A DNA stretch of 64,000 bases. Origin: Methylomonas aurea (GTDB lineage: Bacteria > Pseudomonadota > Gammaproteobacteria > Methylococcales > Methylomonadaceae). Of the stretch, positions 47,193 to 64,000 are shown piece by piece. Every line of letters begins with the position of its first letter. Positions within the stretch are counted from its first letter, which is position 1. The notes beneath the pieces are model-generated. The model did not search any database. It worked only from the letters and a program-made list of their open reading frames with translations, and was not told the origin of the DNA. The stretch is taken from contig NZ_JANIBM010000006.1 in the NCBI RefSeq assembly GCF_024505045.1, positions 62,001-126,000 on the forward strand, given 5' to 3'. The translations under genes and the position numbers were made by a program.

Positions 47193-47903
47193 ATGTTGGA
47201 CACCATGAGAAAGCCGTTTTTTGCCGTCGCACTGGTGCTGTTGGCGTTGGCGTTTTTGATCGACATCGGCGCATCGTTTCTGGATTTCGCCGCGCCGAGC
47301 GGCCAGAAAAGTCCAAGCGATCTGCCGCGGCCGGGTTTGGGGATTCCCTACCTGGCCCTGGTCGACGGACTTTTGCTCTACACCGTGGGGTTGATCGGCG
47401 TGTCGCTGCTGGTACCGGAGCGCATTCACGGCCGAATCCAAGGCATCGCGACTTTTATCGTCGGCTTAATGAGTCTGATCGCGTCGATTGGCATGATTAT
47501 GGCTGCCCTCGCCTTGTTAGGCGTCATGGTTTCGTTGCTGTTGGCGGTGCCGTTCGGCACCGCGCTGTATTTCGCCGGATTCGCCGATTTTGCCAAGGCC
47601 GCGGCGGCCTCCACCCTGGCGCTGATCATGCTGTTGAAGCTGGGTTTTTGCGGTTTTTTGGTCGCGGCCCAGCAGCAATTCCTGCAGAACAAGGGGTTGG
47701 TGCTGCTGACGCTGACGGCCTTGTTGGCGAATATCCTGGTCACTTTCCTGCACGGTCTGGTGCCGGGTTTTCTGGTCAGCATCACCGACTGTATCGCGGC
47801 CTTGGTGATCGGCGTGCTGGGCGCGATCTGGAGCCTGGTGTTGCTGATCGGCTCGCTACCGGCCATCGTCAAGGCCTTGCGCGTCGACCGGGCGCTGGCC
47901 TGA
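47193..47903 (+). CDS. Polytopic membrane protein beside the injection-system operon
   Basis: 236 aa, not recognised. About six or seven hydrophobic helices (13-33, 52-72, 85-105, 108-130, 140-165, 170-195, 205-225) and almost no soluble part. It is convergent with the minus-strand operon, with only 2 bp between the two stop codons, and there is no gene between it and the injection-system genes. It may belong to the system as a membrane component; this is inference from position. Confidence 0.7.
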   Translation: MLDTMRKPFFAVALVLLALAFLIDIGASFLDFAAPSGQKSPSDLPRPGLGIPYLALVDGLLLYTVGLIGVSLLVPERIHGRIQGIATFIVGLMSLIASIGMIMAALALLGVMVSLLLAVPFGTALYFAGFADFAKAAAASTLALIMLLKLGFCGFLVAAQQQFLQNKGLVLLTLTALLANILVTFLHGLVPGFLVSITDCIAALVIGVLGAIWSLVLLIGSLPAIVKALRVDRALA

Positions 47904-47905
47904 GC

Positions 47906-48490
47906 TTATTCCAAGGCTAAGCGCGCGGTTTGCCCATCGCTACAGGTTTCGCAGGTCAGCGTTAAATTGGCGCCTTTCGCCAACACCGGCGCCTTGAAAT
48001 GCTGCGGATCGCGGGCCGGTTTCCAACACAAAGGCTCTTTCCAGTCCGAATCGGCGTCGTTCAATTCGAATCTGACCCGGACCCGGACCGGCGCCGAATT
48101 TTGCGGACAAGCCTCCCCGGCGTCGACCGGAATCAGCAACTGATAATTGTTGGCGCCGCGCAGATTCAAGGTCCTGCGTTCGGCTTGGGTCGGGTCGATT
48201 TTGATCAGGCAGGGCGAGCCGGCGCCGAGCGACAAAGTACCGCCGTCGCGCCGGCAATGGTTATCCAACGGATGAATTTCGGCCGGCTTGATCGCCGGCG
48301 CCAACGGCGCCAGCAGATCGTCCATCGCACTCAGCCAACTATCCTGGCTCAGGCGCGAGGCCTCCCGGTTCTGGCTGCGGGCGCCGGCCGGTTTGTCGTT
48401 GGCTCGGGGGCGAAACCCCAAAGCCAGCGCCAGCGCAAACAGGCATAGCAATAAAACCAAGCCGATGATCACGCCTTTGTTTTGCTCCAT
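47906..48490 (-). CDS. Single-pass membrane protein, last gene of eCIS operon
   Basis: 194 aa, no family recognised. N-terminal transmembrane helix (about 7-26), then a soluble domain of about 165 residues containing cysteines that could form disulfides outside the cytoplasm (HCRRDG, SPCLIK, EACPQNS, PLCWKP, and CETC near the end). Starts 29 bp after the PASTA gene. Its size and topology suggest a membrane-bound accessory exposing a periplasmic domain. Confidence 0.7.
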   Translation of the reverse strand: MEQNKGVIIGLVLLLCLFALALALGFRPRANDKPAGARSQNREASRLSQDSWLSAMDDLLAPLAPAIKPAEIHPLDNHCRRDGGTLSLGAGSPCLIKIDPTQAERRTLNLRGANNYQLLIPVDAGEACPQNSAPVRVRVRFELNDADSDWKEPLCWKPARDPQHFKAPVLAKGANLTLTCETCSDGQTARLALE

Positions 48491-48519
48491 CGATCGAATC
48501 TCCTAATTTCAATCCGTTA

Positions 48520-49536
48520 TTACTGTTCCGCCGGTTCGATGCCGCGCGGCAACACTTTGAACACTCGATTTTGTTTGGTCATCAACTCGGTCAAATCGCG
48601 GTCCCAAATGATCACCGGCCGAGTCGGCTTGGTCGCCACGGTCAGCATGATCGGAGTACCTTTATCCACGGCTTGGCCGGGAGCAGGGGTTTGCTCGATG
48701 ACTGTTTGTTCCGGCTGGGCGGTGGTCGGTTGCGACTTGGCTTCGCCCAACACCAGATTGCTGTTGGATAGGGTTTGCGCCGCAGCGAGCAGCGATTTGC
48801 CTCTCAGGTCCGGCACGGCAACGCCCGGAAAACTCAACACCACCGACACCGTCGTTTCCGCTTCGGCCGCTGATCCCGCAGCGGGAGATTGATCCAGCAC
48901 GATCGGATCGCGCTTGCTGGGATCGAATTTGAAGCTGGTTTCGAATTTACTCAAGCCCGCCTGCTTCAGCCGTTGCTGGGCTTCGTCCCAGATCATGCCT
49001 TTCAGGTCGGGGACTTTGGCTTTTTCGACCACCGGGCCGTTATCGTCGGGCTTCATCATCAACCAAGCCGCTATGCCTATGGTCAACAGCACCACCAGCG
49101 CAAGCACCAGAATCCACCAGGGGAACGGCTTGGGCGGGGGCGGCGGAGCCACCGCGTTCTGGATTTGCAGATAAACCGGTTCGCCGTCCTTGAAGTCGTC
49201 GTCCGGCCTATCCACCGAAAACACCTGCAAGTGGAACGCATATTTGCCGTCGGCAACCGATTTGGGGACTTGAAAATTGACCGATATTTCCTCGGTCGCG
49301 CTCGGCGCCAGCTTCCATTCGTTTGAAATTGCACCGCTGGTCGGCTTGGCGTTGGCGCCGGCCTGAATCGACGTGAACCATTTTTCATCGGCGCCGCTGC
49401 CGGTGACGACCCGGGCTTTGAGCAGCAATTGCCGGTCGTTGTAGGCGTTGGTGACGAAAAACTTGCAATTGCCGTTGCCGTTGCTATCGCAACCCACCTT
49501 GTCTGACGCTTGTTTGATACTGACGATTGCGGTCAT
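48520..49536 (-). CDS. Membrane protein with Ig-like N-domain and PASTA repeats
   Basis: 338 aa. Residues 1-130 form a beta-rich Ig-like domain with no signal peptide. A Pro-rich stretch precedes one transmembrane helix (about 139-160). Two PASTA-type repeats follow (VPDLKGMIWDEAQQRLKQAG and VPDLRGKSLLAAAQTL, each closing with a D/E-Q-x-P-x-x-G motif) and a short tail. The predicted topology puts the Ig-like part in the cytoplasm and PASTA in the periplasm, where PASTA domains usually contact peptidoglycan. It lies 101 bp after tail protein I. A candidate anchor for the particle. Confidence 0.85.
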   Translation of the reverse strand: MTAIVSIKQASDKVGCDSNGNGNCKFFVTNAYNDRQLLLKARVVTGSGADEKWFTSIQAGANAKPTSGAISNEWKLAPSATEEISVNFQVPKSVADGKYAFHLQVFSVDRPDDDFKDGEPVYLQIQNAVAPPPPPKPFPWWILVLALVVLLTIGIAAWLMMKPDDNGPVVEKAKVPDLKGMIWDEAQQRLKQAGLSKFETSFKFDPSKRDPIVLDQSPAAGSAAEAETTVSVVLSFPGVAVPDLRGKSLLAAAQTLSNSNLVLGEAKSQPTTAQPEQTVIEQTPAPGQAVDKGTPIMLTVATKPTRPVIIWDRDLTELMTKQNRVFKVLPRGIEPAEQ

Positions 49537-49637: not shown

Positions 49638-50186
49638 TCAAGTTCCGCCATCGGCGACAAAACAAACTTCGCTGGTCGCGTAAGCCGGTTTTTCCTGGTC
49701 CACGATCCGTTCGATCAGGCCGCGGTGCGGACGCAGTCGTTCCGGCGCCAACACGCACAAATGGAACGGCCGGGCGGCACCGTCGGCCGTGGCGTTTTCC
49801 CTCAGCTCGAAACCGGCGTCGCCGGTGGCAGTCTGTAAAAACAATTTCAGGCCGTAGGCGGTCCCGCGCCATTTCGACAGCAAGGTGGCCGATGCGATCA
49901 GCTCGCGCAAGCGCTCGATACCGGTCGAGATCGGCGGCGCGCCGTTTGCACGGCCGGCACCGGATAGCGGCGACAGCCGGTCCAGATCGACCCAGGCGGC
50001 CAGCATCGGCACGAAACGCTCGTCGGCCAGATACGGGTTAAAACGGGTTTCGACGTTTTCCAGAATCGCTTCGGCCGGCGCGTGCAGCGCTTCCATGATT
50101 TCCAGAATCGCGAACAGCGGCGTCTGCGGCGTCAGGCCGCGCTGGAATATGCCCGGCAGCAGGCGTTCAATCGCTTGGCGTTTCAT
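49638..50186 (-). CDS. Phage tail protein I-like baseplate component
   Basis: 182 aa from ATG 50186; the longer frame only overlaps the previous gene. It resembles the phage-tail protein domain of eCIS (P2 gpI / Afp12-type): LLPGIFQRG..TPL at the start, MLAAWVDLD, and the LISSATLLSKWRGTAYGLKLFL-type central helix block (here LIASATLLSKWRGT). Overlaps the baseplate J gene by 20 bp. Wedge or fibre-connector role by homology. Confidence 0.85.
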   Translation of the reverse strand: MKRQAIERLLPGIFQRGLTPQTPLFAILEIMEALHAPAEAILENVETRFNPYLADERFVPMLAAWVDLDRLSPLSGAGRANGAPPISTGIERLRELIASATLLSKWRGTAYGLKLFLQTATGDAGFELRENATADGAARPFHLCVLAPERLRPHRGLIERIVDQEKPAYATSEVCFVADGGT

Positions 50187-52779
50187 CTTCGCTGACCACT
50201 TCGAGTTCGTGCGCGCCGGAACACAGCAGCCAATTGCAAGGCACGGTGACGGTGTCCGCAAAACTGTCCGCCGAGCAATTGCGGTAATCGCCGGCCGCGC
50301 CGCGCAGATAAAGCCCCTCGACGCCGCCGCACAGCAACAGCGCTTTGCCGGCCGGAGCGGCGGCAATCGCATCGACGGCCTGGAATCTGCCGACATCGCG
50401 CACCGGTAAGCCGCATTTGGCGTCCGGCGCTTTCCAAGCGGGCGCGGCGGAATTGGTGTTCAGGCTCAATACCCCCAGGCGTTGGCTGGCGGCAAATACC
50501 TCTTCGCCGACGAAAGCAAGACCGTTGCAACTGCCGGCTTGCCAGCCGGCCTGAAAGCCTTTCCAGCCTTCGTTGTTATCGCTGGTGCCGGTCAGCCGCC
50601 AACGGAAGCAACCTTTGCCGGGGTCGGCTCCCGGTGCGCCGATTCCCGCCCATAGATAACTATGTCCGCCCTGGTTTTGCACGGCAAGCAGCCGGACCAG
50701 TTCGCCTTTCAAACCGATGGCGCTGAAGCTGCCGGCGCGGCCGCCGTTGTTGGACAGGTATATGCCGCGGTTATTGCCGGCAGCCAGCGCGACGCTGACC
50801 AAGCCGGAGGCGTCGGCCGCAACGGCAAGCGCGTATAACGGGATTTCGTTGTCCTCGGCGTCGAATTGCACCGGTTTCGGGCCCGCCGCGGGGTCCCACG
50901 GCACGCCGAGTTCGAACAGGCCTTTCTCGGTGGCCAGCAACAGCGCCAGTTTGGCGTCGCGCTCGACCCAGGCCATGTCCTCGACCAGAAAATTGGTCTC
51001 TACGTAATCCAGCCAGCTTTCGCCGCAGTCGAGCGAGACTCTGACCCGGCTGGCGCCGTCGCTGTCGAGCAGGCGCGAGCTGATCGCCAGCAAGCCGGCA
51101 TGTTTCGGATCGGCGCCGGCCTGTTTCGGCCAGGCCTTGATCGCGTCGATTTTTTCGCCGGCAAACGGCTCGATCAGCTCCCAGCCCTCGCCGTCATTCG
51201 AGGAGCGGAACAGCCCGGCCGGGGTTGCCGTGTACCAGGTCTTGCTCTGGAAGGCGTCGGCGCACAGGGCGCCGACATTGGCGTTCGGCGCGTGTTGCAC
51301 CGACAGCCGGACATTGTTGACCGATTTGACGCCGGGGTCGTCGCCGAGGATTTTGTAGACGTCGAACACCCGTAACGGTTGGCCGAACGGCCAGGGTTGC
51401 GCCGAGTTGGCTTCGATCGGATTGATGCCGCGGTAAAGTTTGCGCAACAAACGCTGCTTCAACTGCTGCGGATCTTCTTCGCGGTGGGTAACGATCTGCG
51501 TCCGTATCGTGACGTTTTTGTAGCGTGCCCAACTGACCTGGCATTCGGTACCCAACGGTCGGCGTTCCGCCAGCGCGTTTTGAATTCGCAGCCGGGCCTC
51601 CTCGCTTTCCAAAGCGTAGAGTTGTTCGGCGGTCAGCGGCGCACTGTAGTCGTCCGGCGCCTGCAGGTTGGGCACGATCAAGACTTCGACGGTACCGGGT
51701 CTGGCGTGGCTCCAGATGTCGGCCCGGGTAAAGGCCTTGGCGCGGTTGGCCGCACCGGAACAATGCACCGCCAGTAGCGCGTAATCGCGGGCCGTCACTA
51801 CCCGTTCCAAGGAATGGATTTGTTGCGGGCCGCGGATCAGCGCGTTTTCCAGCGTTTCCGCGGCTTTGCCGCCGGCGGCCGGTTCCGGGTTGGTCACCGC
51901 AACGCCGACGATCGGATCTTTCAATGTGTTCAGCGTATTCGCCGCCAGATTGCCTTCCGCGCCGCCGCCGCGCCGATACCAGAGCCGGATTTCCCGCCCG
52001 GCCGCCGGCACTTGCGCCAGCGTTTGCAGCGGCGTCATGCCGCCGGCCGGATCGGGCAACCGTAGCGCCGGGGTAAACACGATTTTCCCGGTCAGCCGAT
52101 CCACCAGATAGACTCTGCCGTCCGAACCCGGATTGGCGAAGTTCTCCGCTTCGCGCCAGACGATGTAGGATTTGCCGTCGTACTCCAGCGCCGAGGTATG
52201 GTCTTCGATTTCGTCCGCTCCGGCCTCCACCCCCACCACCAGATCGAGGCCGTCGCGGTTCGGAGCGACGATGGGCGGCCGTTTGGCGTTGACGAAAAAT
52301 CCCGGTTGGCCGTCGCTCTTGCCCGCCAATTCGCCGCGCACCCAGTCGCAGTGGTAGGCAATGCTTTCGGCGCTGGTACTGCCGGCCGGAATCGCCACCG
52401 CCTCGCTGGTGGTGAAGATCGGCGGTTCCCGCCCCGAGCCGGCGCGGCCCAGCGTCACCCGCACGCCTTTCGGGATTTCCACGGCGTGGCCCAACGGTTT
52501 CGGAATCGAAAACACCAATTTGGTGACCGCGGCAGCGGGCGGTTGCAACCTTACCCCGATCAGGTTCAGGAACTCGATATAGGCTTTTTCCGGCAAGCGG
52601 TTCAAGCGGTAGATCATCACCTCGGTCAGATGGGCAAAGGCTTCCAGCAGCACCATCCCCGGGTCGCTCGGACTTAGATCGGTCCATTCCGGGCATTGCT
52701 GGCGAATGCGGTCGCGGGCTTCCTGCAGTAAATCGGCGAAGCGGCGGTCGTCGAGGTTGGGCGGCGTCAAGTAAGTCAT
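50167..52779 (-). CDS. Baseplate J-like wedge protein fused to a C-terminal repeat domain
   Basis: 870 aa. Residues 1-500 are a putative baseplate-assembly protein (Afp11/gpJ type): DDRRFADLLQEARDRI, DPGMVLLEAFAHLTEVMIYRLNRLPEKAY..FLNLIGV, and LERVVTARDYALLA in the middle. From about 510 to 860 the sequence changes to repeated short strands with sialidase-type Asp-box patterns (SSNDGEGW, SLDCGESW, SNNGGRAG), suggesting a beta-propeller. It could be a surface-exposed decoration or receptor-binding module. In operon with gp25 (gap 2 bp) and tail protein I. Confidence 0.9.
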   Translation of the reverse strand: MTYLTPPNLDDRRFADLLQEARDRIRQQCPEWTDLSPSDPGMVLLEAFAHLTEVMIYRLNRLPEKAYIEFLNLIGVRLQPPAAAVTKLVFSIPKPLGHAVEIPKGVRVTLGRAGSGREPPIFTTSEAVAIPAGSTSAESIAYHCDWVRGELAGKSDGQPGFFVNAKRPPIVAPNRDGLDLVVGVEAGADEIEDHTSALEYDGKSYIVWREAENFANPGSDGRVYLVDRLTGKIVFTPALRLPDPAGGMTPLQTLAQVPAAGREIRLWYRRGGGAEGNLAANTLNTLKDPIVGVAVTNPEPAAGGKAAETLENALIRGPQQIHSLERVVTARDYALLAVHCSGAANRAKAFTRADIWSHARPGTVEVLIVPNLQAPDDYSAPLTAEQLYALESEEARLRIQNALAERRPLGTECQVSWARYKNVTIRTQIVTHREEDPQQLKQRLLRKLYRGINPIEANSAQPWPFGQPLRVFDVYKILGDDPGVKSVNNVRLSVQHAPNANVGALCADAFQSKTWYTATPAGLFRSSNDGEGWELIEPFAGEKIDAIKAWPKQAGADPKHAGLLAISSRLLDSDGASRVRVSLDCGESWLDYVETNFLVEDMAWVERDAKLALLLATEKGLFELGVPWDPAAGPKPVQFDAEDNEIPLYALAVAADASGLVSVALAAGNNRGIYLSNNGGRAGSFSAIGLKGELVRLLAVQNQGGHSYLWAGIGAPGADPGKGCFRWRLTGTSDNNEGWKGFQAGWQAGSCNGLAFVGEEVFAASQRLGVLSLNTNSAAPAWKAPDAKCGLPVRDVGRFQAVDAIAAAPAGKALLLCGGVEGLYLRGAAGDYRNCSADSFADTVTVPCNWLLCSGAHELEVVSEDETPSD

Positions 52780-52781
52780 GA

Positions 52782-53210
52782 TTAACCTGCCACGAGTGGG
52801 TAGCCAAATAATAATTGGTCGCGGCCTAGCGTCCGCCGCACCCGGTAATCCAGAACAATGTCGATTCGGGTCGGGTCGTCCGGATTGCTGCCGGCGTCCA
52901 GTTTCAGGATTTCGATGCGCCGTTCCCAGCGTTCCAGGGCCTGGCGCACGAAGTGGATCGCCAGGCCGTGGGTAGTGGCGTCGTTGGGCATGAAGGCCAG
53001 TTTATCCAGACTGCAACCGTAGTCGGGACGCATGACCCGCTCGCCGGGCACCGTGGTCAACAGCATCAGGATCGCCTGGCGTACCGACAAATCCTCGCTG
53101 ACCATGCGGATGCCGCCGCCGGCGGAGATTTCCAGACCGGCCGGCGCGTCGGGATGCAGAAAATCGGGGTGGGCAAAACTCCAGGCCCGGAATCTGGCTG
53201 TGCTGGGCAT
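52782..53210 (-). CDS. gp25-like baseplate protein (Afp9-type)
   Basis: 142 aa. Carries the gp25/lysozyme-like family signature: VRQAILMLLTTVPGERVMRP followed by DYGCSLDKL, then the pattern of a conserved helix and closing strand. Initiates sheath assembly in related machines. Its ATG overlaps the stop of the tip gene by 1 bp (TAATG). Confidence 0.92.
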   Translation of the reverse strand: MPSTARFRAWSFAHPDFLHPDAPAGLEISAGGGIRMVSEDLSVRQAILMLLTTVPGERVMRPDYGCSLDKLAFMPNDATTHGLAIHFVRQALERWERRIEILKLDAGSNPDDPTRIDIVLDYRVRRTLGRDQLLFGYPLVAG

Positions 53211-53548
53211 TAGCGTTCCTCCACAAAATGTTGGCCCGGCTGGCGTACTTTATACAGCACGGTGCCCGGCGGGGTGCCGTCGGTCAAGCCGGTCACGCTG
53301 TCCAGGCAAACCCGTTTGCCGCCGATTCTGATCCAGCTCGAATAGCCGTGCTTGACCGCCAGCGTACTGGTACAGGGTTTGATCGCCGGGCCGGCATTCG
53401 GGCAGCCGACGATCGGCCGTTGCTCCGGATTGGTCTCGACCAACAGTCGGCGGCCGTTGACGGTGACAAACGACTGGGTCGGGACAATGCCGACCAAACC
53501 CAGCTCGTGGGCGCAAACCAGCGTGGCGTCTTCGGTTAACAGTTTCAT
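53210..53548 (-). CDS. PAAR-like spike-tip protein candidate
   Basis: 112 aa, small beta-rich protein with Cys and His (LVCAHELG, GCPN, KPCTS, RVCLD) that could bind metal at the apex as PAAR proteins do. Position between the VgrG-like spike and gp25 is that of Afp10. The first residues LLTEDATLVCAHELGLV and the closing Gly-rich turns fit a beta-prism. Assignment rests on position and composition. Confidence 0.65.
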   Translation of the reverse strand: MKLLTEDATLVCAHELGLVGIVPTQSFVTVNGRRLLVETNPEQRPIVGCPNAGPAIKPCTSTLAVKHGYSSWIRIGGKRVCLDSVTGLTDGTPPGTVLYKVRQPGQHFVEER

Positions 53549-55113
53549 GATTTCTGCTCGAAATTAATGGCCCGGCCGCGAATCGTGATGGTGCGGCCCG
53601 GCGCCTCGATGTCCAGATCGGCCTCGGCATGCAGTCGGGTGCCGTTATCGGCCAGTTCGAAAAAACTGCCGGAATCCAGTTGCAGGCGGATCTTGTCCGG
53701 CTGCAGCTCAACCTGTTGGCCGGATTGGGTTTGCAGCCGGATCGAGCGCTCGGAGTCGTCCAGGCTGATGCGTTGGCCGCCCGGCGTGGACAGAAAATAG
53801 CGGCCGATGTCGGCATCGACCACTGCGTCGTCCGGCAGCGGACTGTCGCCGTACAAGCCGCCGATGACGATGGCCTGGGCCGGATCCTCCCGAATCAGCG
53901 CCAACAGCACTTTATCGCCCAGACTCGGCAGCAGCAGCAGGCCTTTACCTTTGCCGGCCCCGGCGCAGGCGACCTCGATCCAGTCGGTTTCCAGTTCGCC
54001 GTAAGAGGGCAGCATGGCCTTGACCCGGCCCAGGCCGTCCGGATCGTCGACCCTGGTGACGACGCCGACCGTGGCCAGCGTGGCGCGTTTGCGCGGCCGC
54101 AGCGGCGGTGGTGCGGAATCCAGTTCGCAGACGTAGCCCTGGCGGCTATCGAAGCGGTGAGTCACCGCGCTGAGCACGTACTGGCCGTTTACCGGTCCCG
54201 ACAAGCCGTCGAGCTTGACTGCCAGACCGGGCATCAGCTCGGGATTGCCGGCGGCGATGCCCCAAAACACGGTTTCGGCGGCCGTTCTGTGGTCCAGTTG
54301 CGCCTGGGCGTAGGCTTCGGCCTGGTTGTCGTCCTGCACGCTGTCGTCGGTCGAAGTGAATTCCGGCGCCGAATCGGCGTGAAAAGCGGTGTCGGCGGCC
54401 AAGCGGCGGCCGCAGCGGGCGGTATCGGCCCGGCCGCGGCGGGCGGCGGCCTGCCACGGGTCCCAGGCCAGATTGGTCACTGCTTGCCGGCTTCTGCCGC
54501 TATTGGCTTCGATTTTGGCTTCGAGCAGATTTTCGCCCAGTTTTAACACCGGATTGCCGGGATGGCCGGCCAGACTGGCGAACTGCAACACCGAATCGCG
54601 CAAATGGAAATACAGACCGGCGCGTTCGGCGAATTCGGCCAGCAACTCCAGATCGGATTGCTCGTGTTGCATGATCAGCCGCCAGATCGGTCCGGTTTCG
54701 TCGGCCGCGACCGCGATATCCAGATCGCCGACCAAGGTCGCGGCCAATTCGGTGACGGTCAAATCGACATAGGAGCGCGGCGCCTGGCGCTGGCGCAAGC
54801 TGTGCAGCCGGTCGTAAGCGCGGATGCGCAAGCCTAGATTGTTGCCTGGAGCAAATTCGTATTCCAGTGCGGTGATGTTACCTTGAAACAGGCAGCGGTC
54901 GGGACCGGTCCGAACAATCAACTCGGTGCCGTCCGCGAGCGAGGCCAAGTCGCCGAGCAAATCCGGCAGGCCCTGAAACGCCAGTTCGCATTGGCTGGGC
55001 AAGGACAGGCGTTCGCTGACTTGCAGTTCGGTCAGATATTGGGCATCGCCGGCCGCCAACGGCTTGCCGGCCAATTCGATCTGCAGTTGCGGCGGGTTCA
55101 GCAGCGCTTCCAT
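53545..55113 (-). CDS. VgrG-like central spike protein (Afp8-type)
   Basis: 522 aa. N-terminal gp27-like region, an OB-fold (TLATVGVVTRVDDPDGLGRVKAML is the gp5/VgrG hallmark near residue 350) and a C-terminal beta-helix (short strands to residue 522). No extra C-terminal effector domain. Overlaps the tip gene by 4 bp and starts 2 bp after the tube adaptor. Confidence 0.93.
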   Translation of the reverse strand: MEALLNPPQLQIELAGKPLAAGDAQYLTELQVSERLSLPSQCELAFQGLPDLLGDLASLADGTELIVRTGPDRCLFQGNITALEYEFAPGNNLGLRIRAYDRLHSLRQRQAPRSYVDLTVTELAATLVGDLDIAVAADETGPIWRLIMQHEQSDLELLAEFAERAGLYFHLRDSVLQFASLAGHPGNPVLKLGENLLEAKIEANSGRSRQAVTNLAWDPWQAAARRGRADTARCGRRLAADTAFHADSAPEFTSTDDSVQDDNQAEAYAQAQLDHRTAAETVFWGIAAGNPELMPGLAVKLDGLSGPVNGQYVLSAVTHRFDSRQGYVCELDSAPPPLRPRKRATLATVGVVTRVDDPDGLGRVKAMLPSYGELETDWIEVACAGAGKGKGLLLLPSLGDKVLLALIREDPAQAIVIGGLYGDSPLPDDAVVDADIGRYFLSTPGGQRISLDDSERSIRLQTQSGQQVELQPDKIRLQLDSGSFFELADNGTRLHAEADLDIEAPGRTITIRGRAINFEQKS

Positions 55114-55115: not shown

Positions 55116-55883
55116 CTATGGCTCGGCGGAGGGGGCGGCCGGGCCGATTTCCAGCACGGTCCCGGACGCAATGTTTAACGGATCGGCAACGAAGGTGTTG
55201 GCAAACAATTCCCGCCAGCGGCCCGGATCGCCGAAATACTGGAACGACAACAGGTCGGGGCGTTCGCTGCTGCTATTTTCGGCGGCAGTATCGGCCTCCG
55301 CGAGTTCGGTTTCGGCTGCGGCGATCAAGTGCTGCAATCCGCCGGCCGCGAGCGGCGCGTTACCGGGGTAAGTGAAATTTTCGATAGCCATCGCTTCGGG
55401 AAAATCGGCGTCGGTCGGCGCTGGCGGTTCGTTGACCCGCAGCAGCCGCATCCGCAGCCAGGAACGCTGCGGGACGCCGTCCTGGTTGAAATGTTCCAGC
55501 CGTTCGGCGACCGCGGTGACGACGCCCGGAATGTTCCAGCTTTTGCCCCAGACGAAACGGCAGACCGGGACTTGGCCGCTGCCGCCGGTTTTGGCGTTGT
55601 TCTCGGCCAGATTCCAGAACGGCCGGGTCAGGTCGCGCACGTCCTCGCTGCCGATCGACGAGCCGGCGATATTGACATCGAACAGCAGGTCCAGCTCCAA
55701 AACGGTGGTGCCGCCGCCGGTCTGGATGTAGCAATCGTCGGCCAGGCCGTGGCCGGTCAGGATCGCGGCCGAGGACTGCCGGGGCTGGATGCCGGCCTTG
55801 CGCCGCATCACCAGTGTTTCCGGGTTCAACAGGCAGCGTAATTGTTCGCCGCTGTGTTCCAGCACGAAGGCTACTCGTTCCAT
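55116..55883 (-). CDS. Tube-baseplate adaptor (Afp7-like, LysM-type)
   Basis: 255 aa. N-terminal domain of contractile-injection tube adaptors (FVLEHSGEQLRCLLNPETLVM..) and a C-terminal LysM-like segment (LSFQYFGDPGRWRELFANTFVADPLNIASG). LysM-type domains of this kind connect tube to spike in eCIS. It overlaps the preceding disordered protein gene by 13 bp. Confidence 0.9.
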   Translation of the reverse strand: MERVAFVLEHSGEQLRCLLNPETLVMRRKAGIQPRQSSAAILTGHGLADDCYIQTGGGTTVLELDLLFDVNIAGSSIGSEDVRDLTRPFWNLAENNAKTGGSGQVPVCRFVWGKSWNIPGVVTAVAERLEHFNQDGVPQRSWLRMRLLRVNEPPAPTDADFPEAMAIENFTYPGNAPLAAGGLQHLIAAAETELAEADTAAENSSSERPDLLSFQYFGDPGRWRELFANTFVADPLNIASGTVLEIGPAAPSAEP

Positions 55884-57130: not shown

Positions 57131-57142
57131 AGCCGTTGCCGC

Positions 57143-57608: not shown

Positions 57609-58808
57609 TTATGCCGCGTTTTGCGGTTCTACCGGCGTCGCGCCGGCCCATTGCCCGATGCGGAAGATGATGAATTCGGCCGGTTTCACCGGCGCGATGC
57701 CGATTTCGATGATCAGTTGGCCGGCGTCGATGACTTCCTGCGGATTGGTTTCCGCGTCGCATTTGACGAAGAAGGCCTGTTCCGGCGTCGCGCCCTTCAA
57801 GGCGCCGCTACGCCACAACCGGGTCAGAAAAGCCGAGACGTTGCGCACCACCGAGTTCCACAGAATGCGTTCGTTGGGTTCGAACACGGTCCACAGCGTT
57901 CCTTTCGCCAGCGATTCTTCGACCGAGTTGAACAGGCGGCGGACGTTGACGTAGCGCCACTCGCTGCGCGAACTCAAAGTGCGGGCGCCCCAGACCCGGA
58001 TGCCGGAAGTCGGAAACGAGCGGATGCAATTGACGCCGAGCCGGTTCAATTCGCCTTGTTCCTGGTGGGTCAGCATGTAGGTCAAACCCAGCGCGCCGTT
58101 CAAGACCTGGTTGGCCGGCGCTTTGTGGACGTCGGTTTTGGCATAGATCCCGGCCATGAAGCCGGACGGCGGCGTCGCCACTTTCTGAATGGGATTCAGC
58201 GGGTCGGCGGCGACTACCCAGGGGAAGTAGAGCGCGGTGAAGCCGCGGTCGGAGCCGCTCGGCAACAAGCCTTTCACGGCCGGCGCGTCGGCCGGTTTGG
58301 CCGCGGCGTCGCCGGCTTCTTCGCTGCCGATCTGTTTCAGCGCGTCGATGTTCTTTTCCGCGTCGCGCGAGGCATCGAGGATCGCCACCACGTCCTGCCG
58401 GTTTTCGCAGAAGGTTTTTAGGGCTTCCTGCGTGGTTTTGTCGGTATAGCCCGGTGCGGCGACGATGGCGATTTCGTCGATCGGTTCCAGACAATACAGG
58501 CCGGTGCGCTTGCGGGCGTCGCCGACCACCGAGCCGCCTTTGCCGACATTGACCACATAACAGCGCGAGCCGCCGTTACAGAAAAAGGCGTACACCGATC
58601 GGGCCAGATCGGTACTTTCGCTGTCCTCGGCGGTGAATTCGCGGACGAATTGCTGCCAGTTGTTGCAGGCGAAGGCTTCGTTCAGGTGCTTGTTCGCGGC
58701 CGGCGCCACGCCCAGGAAAGCGGCGACTTCGGATCCCACCATTTCGATAGAATTCGATCCGGTCGAGAGCTCTTCGATATAAACGCCCGGTGTCAGATAA
58801 GTAGCCAT
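57609..58808 (-). CDS. Contractile sheath protein
   Basis: 399 aa, phage tail sheath family (Afp2-4). N-terminal YLTPGVYIEE motif, variable middle domain (about 110-200), and C-terminal SIRVWGARTLS-type block (here SGIRVWGARTLSS) with RLFNSVEESL and FNP-like contraction handle region. It is the only sheath gene in the window. Starts 1 bp after the DUF4255 gene stop. Confidence 0.96.
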   Translation of the reverse strand: MATYLTPGVYIEELSTGSNSIEMVGSEVAAFLGVAPAANKHLNEAFACNNWQQFVREFTAEDSESTDLARSVYAFFCNGGSRCYVVNVGKGGSVVGDARKRTGLYCLEPIDEIAIVAAPGYTDKTTQEALKTFCENRQDVVAILDASRDAEKNIDALKQIGSEEAGDAAAKPADAPAVKGLLPSGSDRGFTALYFPWVVAADPLNPIQKVATPPSGFMAGIYAKTDVHKAPANQVLNGALGLTYMLTHQEQGELNRLGVNCIRSFPTSGIRVWGARTLSSRSEWRYVNVRRLFNSVEESLAKGTLWTVFEPNERILWNSVVRNVSAFLTRLWRSGALKGATPEQAFFVKCDAETNPQEVIDAGQLIIEIGIAPVKPAEFIIFRIGQWAGATPVEPQNAA

Positions 58809-58809
58809 G

Positions 58810-59487
58810 TCAGATCTCCAATTGCTCGAAATGTATTACTACGGGTTCTTGAGTCGGATTAGCGGGTTCCACTAATAACTCGCGTCGTTTGGCGCGGATC
58901 AGATAACCGCGGCGGTGTTGGTTCGGGTCGATGCCGGCAAAGCTGAAATTGCCGGCGACATCGGTCCGGGTGTAACGGCCGGCCGCCACCAGCTCGACGT
59001 CGGTGTCGGCCAATGGAATCTCGCCGGGTCCGAGCAGGCGGCCGCTGAAGGTCGCGACCGGGCCCATCCTGACCTGCGGCGGCGCTTTGATGCGCGGCGC
59101 AGTTTGCTCGGCCACAGGCAGCGCGACCGGAACCTTGATCGTAAAGGCCGGCGCCGGCTTGGCAGCCAAGGCTTGCCAGGCTTCGAGCGGTGGCGGCGCA
59201 AACTCGTATTCGAATTCGGTTTGTTGCACGGCTGCCGCGACCAAGGTACCCATTAATTTGTGCGCCGCGGTTTGATCGGCGGCCTGCACCGTGACCAGAT
59301 AGTTCAAAAGCAATTGCGGCTGCGGGCTGCGTGCGGCCGGCGGCGAAGTCAGGCGTTTGAAGTCGAGCAGGTACAGCACGACGGTCGGTTCGGCGGCCGG
59401 GGCGCCGGGCGGCTCGAACGATATTCTGGCTCCGGCGGCGACGGCGTTGATCCAGGCCGACAATTTTTGGTCGGTTTGTTCGAACAT
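58810..59487 (-). CDS. DUF4255/Pvc16-like tube-terminating protein with extra C-terminal domain
   Basis: 225 aa. Residues 1-130 fit the Pvc16 N-terminal family that caps the tube end (ISFEPPG start, LLNYLVTVQA, MGTLVAAAVQQTEFEYEF). About residues 145-225 read like a carboxypeptidase-regulatory beta-sandwich (VATFSGRLLGPGEIPLADTDVEL..TDVAGNFSFAGI). Its ATG directly abuts the caspase gene stop (TGAATG), which ties the protease to the structural genes in one transcript. Confidence 0.82.
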   Translation of the reverse strand: MFEQTDQKLSAWINAVAAGARISFEPPGAPAAEPTVVLYLLDFKRLTSPPAARSPQPQLLLNYLVTVQAADQTAAHKLMGTLVAAAVQQTEFEYEFAPPPLEAWQALAAKPAPAFTIKVPVALPVAEQTAPRIKAPPQVRMGPVATFSGRLLGPGEIPLADTDVELVAAGRYTRTDVAGNFSFAGIDPNQHRRGYLIRAKRRELLVEPANPTQEPVVIHFEQLEI

Positions 59488-61221
59488 TCAGTACCTCCCC
59501 AATCCGGCTAAGGCCCGGTTCTCTGCGGTTCGCAGGCTGGGCCGAAAATAAAACTGGCCATCCGCATCGCCGGCGCCTTGAATCGGACCGTACAGCGGCC
59601 GTTGCGGATGGCCGAGTCGGGAAGATTGGTCGTAAACCGCTGCTTCGATCTGGCCGTAAATAGCGTCGGCCGAGACCGGTTCGGGCTTGTTGTAGTTTTT
59701 CAGAAAATCGATGAATGCGGCGGCGAACACCGAATGGTTGCTGCGCCCCTTGTCCAGCACCGGTTCGTCGCCGCCCGAGGTCAGGAATTTGCGCGATATC
59801 GACGACGATTTCAGCTCGATAATAGAAGCGGCACGGCCGGCCGCGACGGTCGGTTGCGGTGCCGATATCAATCCGGTGTTGCGCAACGATCCGGAAAAGC
59901 AGGAGTCGGCCACGATCAGCACGTGCCTGGCGCGCATGTCTTGCCAGGCGGTGTTAAGCGCAATTTCGTAATCGCTGATCCAGGTGTATTTGTGCGGCGG
60001 TTTGTCGGCATCCACCGGCAGCCAGAAACCTTCCCTATCTTCCTTCTGGCCGTGGCCGGCAAAATAAATCAACAGGTTGTCGTTTTCGGTCAGTTGCTGG
60101 CGCAGTCCGATCAGCGCTTGCCAGATTTGGGCGCGGGTAGCCTCTCGATTCAGCAGCAATTTGACCGAGGCGAAGCCGAACTTGCCGCGCAGCAGTTCGG
60201 CCACCGCGTTGGCGTCGTTGACCGGGGTCTGTAGCCTATCCATCGCGGCGTAATCGTCTATGCCGATCACCAACGCGAAATAACGGCCGGCGGCCGGCGC
60301 GGCAAGCGTTTCGGCTGCCACGCCTTGGCCGCGCAATTTGGTTTCGGTTTGGGCGATTTGGGTTTGCAGCTTGGCGATCTGGGCCTGGTCGGCTTGGGCT
60401 TTTTGCTCCAGTTCGACGATGCGTTGCTGCAATTGCCGGTTGCGCTGCTGTTCGGCCGGATCTGGCTGCGCTGGCGGTTGTTTGATTTGCAAAGATAGGG
60501 CTTCCTTCTCCGCCATCTGTTGCTTCAGGCCGGCTTGAGCCTTGTCCAGCAACCGGTTTGCCTGGGCCAAATCGGCCCGCAATTGGGTGACTAAGGCGCT
60601 ATCGTTCGTTGCGGGAGCTTGGGCCGGTAACCCTGAGGCTTTGCGATACCATTCCTGCGACGCGCTCGGGTCTTGGGTAACGCCCAGGCCTTTGGCCAGT
60701 AAGAAACCCAGGTTGGCTTGGGCGCGGGAATAGCCCTGCTCGGCGGCTTTGCGGTACCAGATCGCGGCATTGGTGTAATCGGCGACCCGCTCATAGAACT
60801 CGCCGAGATAAGTTTGCGCGATCTTATCTCCGGTTTCGGCGCAACCTTTCCAGACGTTCTCTACCTGTTGCAAGTTGGCGGCATCGAAGGCCACTTGCTT
60901 GCCGCCGCCAACGCGGCATTGCCAGACGCTGGTTCGGGCAGGACGCGGCGGCGAGGTGTAGAAAATGCCGTCGCCGATTTCAAACTGTATGCCCGGCAAT
61001 TCGCAATCGACAATGATCTGCTCTTCGGCGCTGCGGGTGCTGCCTTCCGTCGGGTCGCCGGCGCGGCTGGCGTTGACCGGGCAATCGGCCAGTCGCATGG
61101 CGCCGGCACGCGACATGCGGTCGGTGCAGCCGGCCAGCAGCACCGCGCAACCGAAGCCTGCGGCGAATCTGCCGATTCCCGAGGCTTTTGCCAACATCGA
61201 ACGAAAAACTTGCCGTCGCAT
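59488..61221 (-). CDS. Caspase-like (C14) lipoprotein with Sel1 repeats
   Basis: 577 aa from ATG 61221 (AGGAG upstream; a longer frame to 61251 is less likely). Lipobox LAGC at about residue 32. Residues about 115-200 hold Sel1-like repeats (IWYRKAAEQGYSRAQANLGFLLAKG), about 205-305 a coiled coil, about 315-560 a peptidase C14 domain with catalytic His (about 390, YFAGHGQ) and Cys (about 441, ADSCFSG). A lipid-anchored caspase would face the periplasm. Cleaves after basic or acidic residues in relatives; the target is unknown. Between the CHAT gene and the DUF4255 gene in the same operon. Confidence 0.9.
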   Translation of the reverse strand: MRRQVFRSMLAKASGIGRFAAGFGCAVLLAGCTDRMSRAGAMRLADCPVNASRAGDPTEGSTRSAEEQIIVDCELPGIQFEIGDGIFYTSPPRPARTSVWQCRVGGGKQVAFDAANLQQVENVWKGCAETGDKIAQTYLGEFYERVADYTNAAIWYRKAAEQGYSRAQANLGFLLAKGLGVTQDPSASQEWYRKASGLPAQAPATNDSALVTQLRADLAQANRLLDKAQAGLKQQMAEKEALSLQIKQPPAQPDPAEQQRNRQLQQRIVELEQKAQADQAQIAKLQTQIAQTETKLRGQGVAAETLAAPAAGRYFALVIGIDDYAAMDRLQTPVNDANAVAELLRGKFGFASVKLLLNREATRAQIWQALIGLRQQLTENDNLLIYFAGHGQKEDREGFWLPVDADKPPHKYTWISDYEIALNTAWQDMRARHVLIVADSCFSGSLRNTGLISAPQPTVAAGRAASIIELKSSSISRKFLTSGGDEPVLDKGRSNHSVFAAAFIDFLKNYNKPEPVSADAIYGQIEAAVYDQSSRLGHPQRPLYGPIQGAGDADGQFYFRPSLRTAENRALAGLGRY

Positions 61222-61252
61222 GTCTGTTCTCCTAAATCCGCTAGAGCCCATA

Positions 61253-64000
61253 TCAGCCCACCAGCACGAAGGGCGCCCAATAATAGGGATGGCGGTAATC
61301 GGCCGGCGCGGCGCCGCTATCCACCGATACGCCGCGGCTGCTCAACACCTCGCGCCGGCCGGATTTGATCGCATCCGGACTCAGGGTTTGTAAATGAACC
61401 TGTGCCGCCTGCAGTGCCGATCCAGGTGTCTCGCCGGCCTGCAGGTGCCGGTAAAACTCGGCCATCAGCAGGCTGGTCGCCAAATCGTCGACCGGCCACA
61501 AGCTGACGATCGCGGCGCGGGCGCCGGCGGCCAGCAAGCCGCGGCTGAAGCCCAACACATCGTCGCCGCCGGCGGTTTTGCCCTGGCCGGTGCGGCAGGC
61601 GCTCAACACCACCAAATCGGCGTTCAAACGCAGCCCGATCAAGTCCTGCACGGTTAACGCGCCGCCGTCGGCCAGCAGAATCGACGACAACAAAGGCGCG
61701 TTTTCCGCCAGTACGCCGTGGGTGGCAAAGTGCAGCACATTGAAATCCGGTATCGCCTCCCGTACCGCGGCCACCGTCGCTGCCGGTCCGATCAACGTGC
61801 GGTGGTGATCGAATAATCGGGCAATGTGGGCGGCTTCGGTTTCGGCGGCCGGCAGCGACGGTTGGGCTACTGCATGCTCGGCAAACGGCGCTTGGTAGGC
61901 CATCTTGGCCGGATTGCCGACTGCCAGCACCACCGGTTTTGGGCTACTCACGGGCTTGGCGAGAAATTGCAGAATGCTGGCGCTGGGCAGATAGGACACG
62001 GTGTGGCCGGCGATCAGCGGCCGGCCTTGCCAGGGTAGGGCATGGAACGGCAGGGCATGGGTCGTACCGTAGGGTACGATGAGCAGGCGATTGTGCGTAT
62101 CGAGGACGCCGGCAAAAGGCTTCAATAACCATTCGCTGAGCTGGTCGCCGGTTTGGCGGTAGTCGCCGCGGCGTTCGCAGGCCGTATGGAAATCGCGCAC
62201 CCGGCGGTCCAGTTGCTTGGCGTCGATATTTTGCCGCTCTGCCGTAATCAAACCTTGGCCGTCGATAGCCCAGGCCAGCAGGTCTTCGCCGAGAAAGGCG
62301 TATTGCAGCAAAGCCGTGCCGGCCGGCAACAGGCCGGCAATTTGGCTGACGTCGGCGATCGGTGCCTGGCGGTTGACGGAGCGGTAGAAGCTGGGGTTTG
62401 CTGCGGCCAGTTGGGTTTCGGTCTGGCGTAATTGATTTTCGGCGGCGGCAATTTTTTGTTCAAGATAGGCAATCCGGCCGGCATCCGGCGTTTGCGCGCC
62501 GCGCTCGCCAGCCAATAGGCTGCCCCAGGTCGCCAGCTTGGCCGTGTCCTGCAGCCAGCGGCGGACGCTTTCGTCTGCGTTGCGTTCGGGGCGATTGGCG
62601 CCGTTAGCCATCAGGTCCAGCAGCGCGCGGGCTTTGCCGCGCTCGGCATAGTGGTAGGCGGTTTGCCGGTGGCTGGCTGCTGAAGCCGGTTGCAATGCCG
62701 CCAATTTCAACGCATTTCTGGCCGGCAAAAAATACAGGTATTGCGAGCTGGATGCGGACGATAAGGCGGTTTTGAAGTTGTCCCGCCGCAGCAATTGCCG
62801 GGAACGTTCGAACTCATCCAGCGCTTTGGCATAGTACTCGGAGGCCTGCGTTAAATTTTCCAGGCCTTCGGCGACTTCGCCGTAGGTTTGCAGACTCTCC
62901 CAGGGCTTGTCTTCGCTTTGCCACCAATCTTTACCGAAGCGGTTTTCCAATTGGCCGAGATGGTCCGCCGAATCGGCATAAGCCTTGATCATGCAGAAAA
63001 ACAGCGCCGCCTGCTGTTGGCTATTGCGCCATTGTTGTTGGATGCCGGCTTGGATCGCTTCGCCGCCGATCTGCGCCGCCAGCGCTTCGATGCTGCTGCT
63101 CAGCGGCGAGGCAGCGATTTGCTTCGGCAGATAGCGGCGGTAGGCTGCGGCGGCGGCAGGGTAGTCTTTGCGCTGGGCGTGGACGATCGCCAACTGAAAG
63201 TCGCGGTGGTGTTGAGCCGTTTTGTCGGCTGCCGCCAGTGCAATGGCAAATTGCCGCTCCGCTTCCGTCCGATCGCCGGCATTGCGTGCGGCCAGCGCCC
63301 GGTAACACGGGGCATTGACGGCGGTGTATTCGATGGCCTCCTGCGCCAGCTGCGCCACCAATAAGCCGGCGCCGGTATTGTCGCTGGCGGGGTGAGTTTT
63401 CAACCAATCGATTTGGGTCTGCAGTTTGCCGGCGATGGTTTCCATATTGTCGGCGTCCATACCGTCCAGATAGGCCTGCCACAGACCGTGCAGCGACAAC
63501 AGTAGGCGCAGCGGCGCGTCGGCGTCGAGCCTGGCCGAGTTTTGGGCTGCCGATTGCAATTCGACCGCCTGTTGCAGGTGGACGATGGCGGCGTCGCGCT
63601 CGCCCAGCTTACGCAGCAGGTAGCCCTGGTCCATCAGGCTTTGCACCCGCCGCGGCGTCGAACCCAGGCCGGTATACAGCGATTCGGCCAGACGAAAGCA
63701 GGCCAGCGCCCGCTCGAAATCGGCATCGCGCAACAGCCAGTGCCAACCGAGGCGGCTGTGCAGGAATCCCAGACCCAATGCATAACTGAACGAGCCGGCG
63801 GTTTTGCCCCACTCGCCGATGCCGGCGGCGATGTCGCGCGGTTCCGGCACTTGGCCGTCGGCGACTTTCAGCAACGCGACATGCGCGGCGGCGGTCCAGT
63901 AACCGTAACCGTCGCCGGCAGCTTGGAACTGCTCTCGGGCGCTGCTCGCTTTGGCCAACGCTGCGGCAGTGTCGTTTGCCAACGCCGCCAAATAGGCATG
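61253..64000 (-). CDS. TPR-like helical protein with C-terminal CHAT protease domain, 5'-truncated by window edge
   Basis: At least 915 codons; the frame is open through the window end, so the TTG at 63991 is not necessarily the start. Residues about 1-480 (from 63991) are TPR-like helix pairs, then a coiled linker, then CHAT (about 590-912): LPFHALPWQGRPLIAG, catalytic His in LHFATHGVLAENAPLLSS, catalytic Cys in VVLSACRTGQGKTAGGDD, and GARAAIVSLWPVDD. CHAT is a separase/caspase-fold cysteine protease. Its stop lies 31 bp before the caspase gene. Confidence 0.92.
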   Translation of the reverse strand, partial: HAYLAALANDTAAALAKASSAREQFQAAGDGYGYWTAAAHVALLKVADGQVPEPRDIAAGIGEWGKTAGSFSYALGLGFLHSRLGWHWLLRDADFERALACFRLAESLYTGLGSTPRRVQSLMDQGYLLRKLGERDAAIVHLQQAVELQSAAQNSARLDADAPLRLLLSLHGLWQAYLDGMDADNMETIAGKLQTQIDWLKTHPASDNTGAGLLVAQLAQEAIEYTAVNAPCYRALAARNAGDRTEAERQFAIALAAADKTAQHHRDFQLAIVHAQRKDYPAAAAAYRRYLPKQIAASPLSSSIEALAAQIGGEAIQAGIQQQWRNSQQQAALFFCMIKAYADSADHLGQLENRFGKDWWQSEDKPWESLQTYGEVAEGLENLTQASEYYAKALDEFERSRQLLRRDNFKTALSSASSSQYLYFLPARNALKLAALQPASAASHRQTAYHYAERGKARALLDLMANGANRPERNADESVRRWLQDTAKLATWGSLLAGERGAQTPDAGRIAYLEQKIAAAENQLRQTETQLAAANPSFYRSVNRQAPIADVSQIAGLLPAGTALLQYAFLGEDLLAWAIDGQGLITAERQNIDAKQLDRRVRDFHTACERRGDYRQTGDQLSEWLLKPFAGVLDTHNRLLIVPYGTTHALPFHALPWQGRPLIAGHTVSYLPSASILQFLAKPVSSPKPVVLAVGNPAKMAYQAPFAEHAVAQPSLPAAETEAAHIARLFDHHRTLIGPAATVAAVREAIPDFNVLHFATHGVLAENAPLLSSILLADGGALTVQDLIGLRLNADLVVLSACRTGQGKTAGGDDVLGFSRGLLAAGARAAIVSLWPVDDLATSLLMAEFYRHLQAGETPGSALQAAQVHLQTLSPDAIKSGRREVLSSRGVSVDSGAAPADYRHPYYWAPFVLVG

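What the first reader, a model, noticed from the sequence alone, without database searches (positions are those of the whole stretch)
47193..64000. Contractile injection operon carrying two caspase-fold proteases and membrane anchors
Sequence shows one minus-strand run of tightly spaced or overlapping genes encoding sheath, tube, adaptor, spike, tip, gp25, baseplate and tail I proteins, preceded by a caspase-like lipoprotein (59488-61221) and a TPR-CHAT protease (61253-64000) and followed by PASTA and single-pass membrane proteins. Caspase ATG/stop contacts (TGAATG with the DUF4255 gene) place the proteases in the transcript. Established: eCIS are phage-tail-like particles, and some act inside the producing cell (Streptomyces cell death, Anabaena thylakoid-anchored). 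Inference: here a membrane-bound machine coupled to a protease pair, possibly a stress- or phage-triggered death or processing system.
Basis: partly seen in the sequence, partly recalled or inferred. Interest (0 to 1): 0.9.

Follow-up and report, generated by a model that had tools for sequence, protein, structure and literature searches.

The report
Membrane-docked injection machine with caspase-like proteases
A methane-oxidising bacterium carries one operon that joins a stripped-down, spring-loaded injection machine, apparently docked on its own membrane, to exported caspase-like proteases and cell-wall enzymes; close relatives of the machine occur in six bacterial phyla.

Summary
Window 47906-64000 (-) encodes a compact contractile injection system (CIS) whose operon runs about 5.6 kb past the window: lysozyme lipoprotein, MlaD-like lipoprotein, C14 caspase with an NlpC/P60-like motif, 1275-aa TPR-CHAT protease with a twin-arginine motif, then the Sel1-C14 lipoprotein. 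So there are three caspase-fold proteases, all with export motifs, catalytic residues intact in 4 of 4 genus loci. The CIS belongs to a sheath clade (17 rows, SH-aLRT 97; one further row leaves it in the fuller tree) with near-constant gene order in six phyla: one sheath, no ATPase, tape-measure or fibre gene seen, and three membrane proteins (Ig-TM-PASTA, single-pass, 6-TM). The 6-TM and baseplate genes occur in the same 3 of 394 genomes. The full-length caspase occurs in the same 4 of 201 order genomes as the compact sheath; a 50%-identical C14 and the lysozyme accompany a related CIS in another phylum. Exported proteases flank 5 of 14 lineages, so they are accessory. Best reading: a T6SS-like, inner-membrane-docked CIS with an exported protease and cell-wall module (docking inferred). 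The death-system idea is untested and less likely. New variant of a known kind.

The parts
61253..64000 (-). TPR-CHAT protease, C-terminal 915 aa of a 1275-aa protein that starts at extrapolated window position 65080 (L002:6254-10081); twin-arginine motif DRRTFLK; CHAT His/Cys motifs. Upstream on the same strand, outside the window: C14 protease with NlpC/P60-like motif (L002:10095-12857, 920 aa), MlaD-like lipoprotein (L002:12936-13688), lysozyme lipoprotein (L002:13747-14553).
59488..61221 (-). Sel1-repeat C14 caspase lipoprotein (577 aa from the ATG preceded by AGGAG; longest ORF 587 aa from 61251)
58810..59487 (-). Pvc16_N/DUF4255-like tail-end (cap) protein, below the Pfam cut-off
57609..58808 (-). 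compact single sheath, 399 aa
57143..57574 (-). gp19-type tube protein
55871..57130 (-). Pro/Ala-rich linker protein with recurring ends (W-P-x-L-P and E-Q-x-G near the C-terminus in most rows); fast evolving (dN/dS 0.55-0.73)
55116..55883 (-). CIS_tube (Cis7-like) second tube/adaptor
53545..55113 (-). VgrG-like spike
53210..53548 (-). PAAR-like tip with conserved C/H/C/C
52782..53210 (-). gp25 sheath initiator
50167..52779 (-). Baseplate_J (Cis11-like) with a C-terminal BNR/propeller-like region (from about residue 500)
49638..50186 (-). Tail_P2_I baseplate protein (Cis12 position)
48520..49536 (-). bitopic anchor: Ig-like N-terminal domain, TM 140-160, two PASTA domains
47906..48490 (-). single-pass membrane protein with beta-rich domain
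47193..47903 (+). convergent multi-TM (about 6 TM) protein, found with the CIS in 14 of 14 lineages (two of them on another contig)

Best explanation
A membrane-docked, T6SS-like CIS with an eCIS-type sheath, equipped with an exported protease and cell-wall module. Shown by sequence: a minimal tail (cap, one sheath, tube, adaptor, spike, tip, gp25, baseplate J and tail I) with three conserved membrane proteins; no ATPase, tape-measure or fibre gene recognised in the core; export motifs on the five upstream proteins; intact catalytic residues. Inferred: the tail assembles in the cytosol and its baseplate docks on an inner-membrane platform made of the Ig-TM-PASTA protein (N-terminus in, PASTA domains holding peptidoglycan), the single-pass protein and the 6-TM protein. 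Lipid-anchored lysozyme and the NlpC/P60-like tail of the caspase open or edit the wall where the machine sits. The periplasmic or outer-membrane caspase-fold proteases process platform, substrate or incoming proteins at the firing site. Contraction then drives spike and tube outward through the cell's own envelope.
For: One sheath clade with near-constant gene order in six phyla. The 6-TM protein occurs in exactly the 3 of 394 f63 genomes that carry the clade's baseplate gene and in 14 of 14 lineages (Desulfobacteraceae and Nitrococcus on a second contig). In plasmids 6 of 72,556 records have it; 4 opened records hold the CIS and 1 unopened has the baseplate gene. The anchor sits just after the baseplate genes with one TM helix, as reported for CisA. 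A multi-TM protein marks the T6SS-mode group of haloarchaeal CIS. Operon spacing; protease dN/dS 0.10-0.33. P0008 full length is in 4 of 201 order genomes, the same 4 that have the compact sheath. A Desulfobacteraceae MAG with a related CIS has a related lysozyme lipoprotein after its CIS, and on another contig, beside the 6-TM gene, a C14 50.5% identical to P0008 over 661 aa. Exported proteases with wall enzymes also flank clade CIS in Acidobacterium (2 C14, RlpA-like), Paracoccus and G872 (trypsins, PG_binding, amidase): 5 of 14 lineages against 2 of 42 other CIS loci, p 0.008.
Against: No experiment. 9 of 14 lineages show no protease nearby, so the core does not need them. The enrichment weakens to p 0.023 without the window host, where the pattern was noticed, and to p 0.067 without the Desulfobacteraceae MAG as well; flanks were longer for clade loci and the protease profiles were grown from clade sequences. 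Export rests on motifs: a hydropathy scan at TM threshold saw a segment only in the MlaD-like protein among the five, and a crude signal regex did not flag TPR-CHAT. The anchor model has pTM 0.40; the single-pass protein had no PDB match at E<=0.001. The Desulfobacteraceae link crosses a contig break. In Nitrococcus the one C14 found lies in a T6SS cluster, and the C14 genes of both Myxococcus (13 and 9) are on other contigs than the CIS. One Rhodovulum plasmid keeps the 6-TM gene with no annotated CIS gene within 14 kb. Relatives of the Sel1-C14 lipoprotein are common without this CIS. A terminator-like match lies before the anchor gene.
Confidence: 0.55

Rival explanations
1. The exported proteases and wall enzymes are cargo or effectors that act on a neighbour after injection, while the machine is T6SS-like.
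For: They are the variable part of the locus and differ in fold between lineages (C14/CHAT vs trypsin; lysozyme vs amidase), as effectors do; in G872 an Amidase_2-Trypsin_2-Endonuclease_NS protein of 868 aa lies in the flank.
Against: Lipoprotein, Sec- and Tat-type motifs are unusual for tube-loaded cargo (established knowledge); no immunity-like protein was among the Pfam hits, though none was searched for specially; protease genes come first in the operon.
Confidence: 0.22
2. Self-directed death device: the CIS fires within the producer and the caspases execute death on stress or phage infection, as reported for the Streptomyces CIS.
For: The best PDB sequence matches of sheath and baseplate J are chains of 8bky/9gtp (entries recalled as the S. 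coelicolor CIS); the anchor has a CisA-like position; bacterial caspases and CHAT proteases act in death systems (recalled; search listing only).
Against: Proteases carry export motifs; no gasdermin or CRISPR protein among the Pfam hits; PADLOC shows only generic or weak matches. Not tested otherwise.
Confidence: 0.1
3. Free extracellular eCIS: the lysozyme and proteases are a lysis or maturation cassette for releasing particles.
For: The lysozyme is endolysin-like (phrog_7, 6.2e-35); eCIS are released by lysis (recalled).
Against: No fibre, tape-measure or ATPase gene recognised; three conserved membrane proteins; the lysozyme has a lipobox in both phyla; no holin among the Pfam hits (no holin model was run specially).
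Confidence: 0.1
4. Protease genes are passengers that happen to share the transcript.
For: 9 of 14 lineages lack them; Sel1-C14 and C14 genes are common elsewhere; the enrichment depends on few lineages.
Against: Full-length P0008 only with the compact sheath in 201 genomes and a relative with a related CIS in another phylum; exported proteases of two folds in 5 of 14 lineages.
Confidence: 0.12

Closest known systems
Streptomyces CIS (type IId) with CisA
   Same: Best PDB sequence matches of sheath and baseplate J are chains of 8bky and 9gtp (entries recalled as S. coelicolor CIS). A bitopic membrane protein lies just downstream of baseplate genes with cytosolic N-terminus and periplasmic C-terminus (passages of PMC12237407).
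   Different: Anchor here has an Ig-like domain and PASTA domains, whereas the CisA C-terminal domain is likened to substrate-binding domains; extra single-pass and 6-TM proteins; 399-aa sheath; baseplate J has a BNR-like tail; protease and wall-enzyme module.
Haloarchaeal T6SS-mode CIS (Halogeometricum borinquense)
   Same: No tape-measure homologue; T6SS mode correlates with a conserved six-TM protein (passages of PMC11566945).
   Different: Bacterial; bitopic anchor with PASTA domains; whether the two multi-TM proteins are related was not tested.
T6SS i-iii (and iv)
   Same: T6SS i-iii lack plug, fibre and tape-measure homologues (PMC12210884 section 5).
   Different: No IcmF/TssM, TssK or other T6SS Pfam hit in the operon; no ClpV-like gene seen; sheath is of the Phage_sheath_1 type.
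Anabaena thylakoid CIS (7b5h)
   Same: Membrane-attached CIS; sheath related (4.7e-85).
   Different: There a baseplate extension anchors the CIS; sequence match weaker than to 8bky (3.4e-136).
Craspase TPR-CHAT (Csx29)
   Same: TPR-CHAT architecture.
   Different: NCBIfam Csx29 scores 30.9 against a cut-off of 300; no CRISPR protein among the operon's Pfam hits; twin-arginine motif.
CHAT proteins in a Bacteroides fragilis T6SS variable region
   Same: Published neighbourhood of CHAT-domain proteins and a contractile system (passages of PMC11854122).
   Different: Proposed there as immunity proteins; the word caspase does not occur in that paper's main text.

Membership tests
Contractile injection system (general) | sheath, tube, spike, gp25 and baseplate genes in one locus | tested here: met
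eCIS (free particle) | tail-fibre gene (Cis13) | tested here: inconclusive
   none recognised in the gene order, but fibres diverge fast and no fibre model was run
eCIS (free particle) | AAA ATPase (Cis15) | tested here: not met
   P-loop pattern scan of predicted genes within 6 kb of the core in 17 contexts: hits are ABC-type by sequence or record annotation, spurious (CHAT, baseplate J) or an AAA_22 protein in one of two Myxococcus; an ATPase elsewhere in the genome was not looked for
eCIS (free particle) | tape measure (Cis14) | tested here: inconclusive
   no unassigned long ORF in the window's core except the Pro/Ala-rich protein, which could play this part; no tape-measure model was run
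eCIS (free particle) | release of particles | not testable with these tools
   needs microscopy
T6SS i-iii | TssJLM/TssK complex and ClpV | tested here: not met
   no such Pfam hit in any operon gene
T6SS mode of action | docked on the cytoplasmic membrane while firing outward | not testable with these tools
   three conserved membrane proteins are consistent
Streptomyces CisA-type CIS | bitopic membrane protein downstream of baseplate genes | tested here: met
   one TM helix by model and hydropathy, position; orientation inferred
Streptomyces CisA-type CIS | homology or same fold as CisA | not tested
   CisA itself was not fetched
Prophage or R-type tail | close relatives in phages | tested here: not met
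   baseplate J: 6 of 50,697 phage records, at most 41% of the query, 24-26% identity
Craspase (type III-E) | Csx29-level match and CRISPR genes | tested here: not met
Bacterial gasdermin/caspase death system | gasdermin or sensor partner in the operon, cytosolic protease | tested here: not met
   no such Pfam hit in the operon; export motifs

The most novel reading that the evidence does not exclude
An independently evolved, minimal secretion machine of T6SS type, spread over six phyla, with its own trans-envelope platform (Ig-TM-PASTA, single-pass and 6-TM proteins) and without an ATPase, in which a periplasmic caspase and CHAT cascade, with local wall opening, licenses or terminates firing: proteolytic control of an injection machine from outside the cytoplasm.
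Probability: 0.25. Interest if true: 0.87.

Novelty: new variant of a known kind. Interest (0 to 1): 0.68.

Why it matters
It adds a compact class of CIS, so far as my searches show not described as such, that looks docked at the membrane and shows no ATPase, tape-measure or fibre gene. That makes the open question of how eCIS-type tails become T6SS-like testable on a 10-kb locus that also occurs on plasmids. It also places caspase-fold proteases, usually discussed in death and defence, in the export route beside an injection machine.

Tried and rejected
I first read a neighbour of the Sel1-C14 relatives as TssA and a general T6SS link. Pfam showed a Ser/Thr kinase, so I withdrew it. A gene matching the Nitrococcus kinase lies in 15 of 20 fetched regions; two of these and the Nitrococcus one were Pfam-tested. 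Among the loci read, only the Nitrococcus copy sits in a T6SS cluster confirmed by Pfam. TPR-CHAT as Craspase: rejected. The PADLOC hit of the anchor (PD-T4-6) falls on its TM and PASTA part. Five further full-length compact sheaths were not used as clade members: G525 and G499 (sheath and tube only recognised), G231 and G264 (sheath only), G412 (several CIS genes). Adding them to the tree moved Jannaschia out of the clade to join G525 and G499, and left the window's sister unresolved within a 6-row set (support 91) that holds Desulfobacteraceae, Acidobacterium and Myxococcus; in the first tree Desulfobacteraceae was the sister (90). My first gene finder (longest ORF) failed on GC-rich loci; the second is home-made. 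A trypsin-like hit about 15 kb beyond the Myxococcus L080 CIS (in L198, likely a wrong frame) was dropped from the 5-of-14 count. The 14 lineages were grouped by hand: genus copies, both Myxococcus, both Caulobacter and both Rhodovulum merged; Jannaschia kept. The 2 of 42 controls were not flagged as exported by a crude regex; I quote p 0.008 with them kept. The 2019 eCIS survey (recalled) is not held, so its subtypes could not be compared.

Full report
What is there. The window is contig C6:62001-126000 of a 4.81-Mb genome that holds two AMO-family (methane/ammonia monooxygenase) genes; the genus is not told. On the minus strand Pfam recognises a contractile tail set. I took the next 31 kb of the contig. 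The CHAT frame is 1275 aa, and three more genes precede it: C14 protease (920 aa), MlaD-like (250 aa) and phage-type lysozyme (268 aa). Next upstream is an autotransporter gene, 125 bp away, with two promoter-like sites before it (fewer sites than shuffles give, so not evidence of a promoter). Gaps from lysozyme to the last membrane gene run from -20 to 101 bp. No promoter-like site on the operon strand lies inside the operon; a weak terminator-like match lies in the 101-bp gap before the PASTA gene.

Export. By motif the lysozyme, MlaD-like and Sel1-C14 proteins have lipoboxes, the 920-aa C14 protein a Sec-like start, and TPR-CHAT a twin-arginine motif. The C14 and CHAT His/Cys motifs, and an NlpC/P60-like Cys/His in the C14 tail, are present in 4 of 4 genus loci. 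The NlpC/P60 reading rests on motif only, since Pfam gave no such hit. No trained signal predictor was available; a hydropathy scan at TM threshold flagged only the MlaD-like start among the five and a crude regex flagged lysozyme and both C14 proteins but not TPR-CHAT. Protease dN/dS is 0.10-0.33 over three comparisons. The lysozyme and Sel1-C14 genes of two genomes have higher dS (0.58-0.59) than their neighbours (0.07-0.28), which suggests recombination.

The machine is a clade. Nine of the 80 loci share the window's order wholly or largely: Desulfobacteraceae MAG, two Myxococcus, Nitrococcus MAG, Acidobacterium, Cryobacterium, two Caulobacter, Jannaschia. I printed maps to L104 and judged the rest by the lack of tip and anchor hits. 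Plasmids of Deinococcus, Paracoccus and Rhodovulum and three genomes of family f63 add more. In a 90-row sheath tree the 18 rows form one side of a branch (SH-aLRT 95). With five more compact sheaths, 17 rows stay together (97) and Jannaschia leaves. Both are quick searches with long branches. Hosts fall in Pseudomonadota, Thermodesulfobacteriota, Myxococcota, Acidobacteriota, Actinomycetota and Deinococcota. The core spans 9.1-10.2 kb in 14 of 17 contexts; the others are two broken Nitrococcus contigs and Jannaschia (7.7 kb), which also lacks a recognised anchor and cap. The Rhodovulum cap was not recognised by my model and the Cryobacterium baseplate frame looks broken. The 6-TM gene was found in all 14 lineages, Cryobacterium included. 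A Pro/Ala-rich gene of variable length stands between tube and adaptor genes; none was found in Cryobacterium, it is short in Jannaschia, and in some GC-rich loci (G678, G817) the ORF picked may be a wrong frame.

Membrane proteins. The anchor model (pLDDT 78, pTM 0.40) has an Ig-like N-terminal sandwich (PapD- and MSP-type hits), a TM helix and two PASTA domains. PASTA is confirmed by Pfam for the window and Cryobacterium and by record annotation on the opened plasmids; in Nitrococcus and Jannaschia Pfam sees none, and the Myxococcus C-terminal part aligns poorly. The single-pass protein has a beta-rich domain without a solid PDB match. The multi-TM protein of 47193-47903 is in 3 of 394 f63 genomes, exactly those with the baseplate gene. 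It is in 6 of 72,556 plasmid records: four opened records with the CIS, one unopened Rhodovulum record with a baseplate hit, and one R. sulfidophilum plasmid where no CIS gene is annotated within 14 kb.

Are the proteases linked? In the order, 66 of 201 genomes have some sheath match at E<=0.001 but only four have the compact one. Full-length P0008 occurs in those same four; 5 others match at C14-domain level only. In the genus 5 of 37 genomes have the baseplate gene; the fifth is a 4.4-kb contig that I could not check for proteases. In the Desulfobacteraceae MAG the lysozyme lipoprotein follows the CIS, and the one C14 gene found lies beside the 6-TM gene near a contig start, 50.5% identical to P0008 over 661 aa, without the NlpC-like tail. 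The Acidobacterium locus has two C14 genes and an RlpA-like gene on the opposite strand. The Paracoccus plasmid and G872 have trypsin-like proteases with PG_binding or amidase domains. Together 5 of 14 lineages have exported proteases nearby against 2 of 42 other CIS loci with any hit (p 0.008); without the window host p is 0.023, and without the Desulfobacteraceae MAG too 0.067. Flank lengths differ, lineages were merged by hand, profiles were grown from clade sequences, and only C14, CHAT, trypsin, lysozyme and NlpC profiles were used. PF00656 rings in 9 of 13 genomes with the CIS and in none of four (Cryobacterium, two Caulobacter, Jannaschia); it listed only one of the two Acidobacterium C14 genes, so it undercounts. 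The Nitrococcus C14 lies in a T6SS cluster, and no Myxococcus C14 is on the CIS contig. So the proteases are an accessory, repeatedly recruited module, conserved with the CIS where present.

Against known systems. PDB profiles place the sheath nearest 8bky, 8bl4 and 9ezm, then Anabaena, Pvc and other eCIS proteins. Baseplate J is nearest 9gtp, with a tail beyond residue 500 that matches BNR-type proteins weakly. CisA in Streptomyces (passages of PMC12237407) and a six-TM protein in haloarchaeal T6SS-mode CIS (passages of PMC11566945) are precedents for membrane proteins tied to eCIS-type tails that work at the producer's membrane. Surveys that require fibre genes or at least ten core genes (passages of PMC12923769 and PMC8213781), or that start from eight reference clusters (PMC12210884 section 5), could miss this clade or fold it into others. 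My searches listed no paper that by title and abstract start joins CIS with PASTA anchors or C14 caspases (listings only; one search lists 20 papers holding both words); one paper mentions CHAT proteins in a B. fragilis T6SS region (passages). The library lacks most subscription papers.

Verdict. The most likely mechanism is a membrane-docked, T6SS-like CIS with an exported protease and wall-enzyme module; docking and protease roles are inferred. New variant of a known kind.

Noticed in passing
L174:3713-6319 (-), G872: 868-aa protein with Amidase_2, Trypsin_2 and Endonuclease_NS domains in the flank of a clade CIS.
   Followed up: partly
L239-L258; L172:16963-18654: Relatives of the Sel1-C14 lipoprotein are in 33 of 303 genomes of the class and lie near a gene matching a Ser/Thr kinase in 15 of 20 fetched regions; the Nitrococcus MAG copy lies in a T6SS cluster.
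   Followed up: partly
L265:13863-17912 (AP014802.1): Rhodovulum sulfidophilum DSM 2351 plasmid keeps the 6-TM gene but no annotated CIS gene within 14 kb; an Rhs-family gene and a small ORF sit beside it. Rhodovulum MB263 has a T6SS VgrG and PAAR gene upstream of its CIS.
   Followed up: no
L002:14679-16010 (-): Autotransporter gene 125 bp upstream of the operon; ORFs of similar size stand at the same place in the three other genus loci, homology not checked.
   Followed up: no
G187 and other genus genomes: Many other members of the genus have different, longer sheaths (open frames of about 500-745 aa); the G187 locus that I mapped has two sheath genes.
   Followed up: partly
window 50167-51300 (-): The baseplate J protein ends in a BNR/Asp-box-like region conserved in the clade.
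   Followed up: partly
G000:C34:5314 (L247): The genome has a second Sel1-C14 protein (750 aa) near a Ser/Thr kinase gene.
   Followed up: no
L033, L034 (G525, G499): Compact sheath and tube genes without other recognised CIS genes; their sheaths group with Jannaschia in the fuller tree.
   Followed up: partly
window 43066-46433 (+): HlyD-type and FUSC-like genes in a probable efflux pair left of the operon.
   Followed up: no
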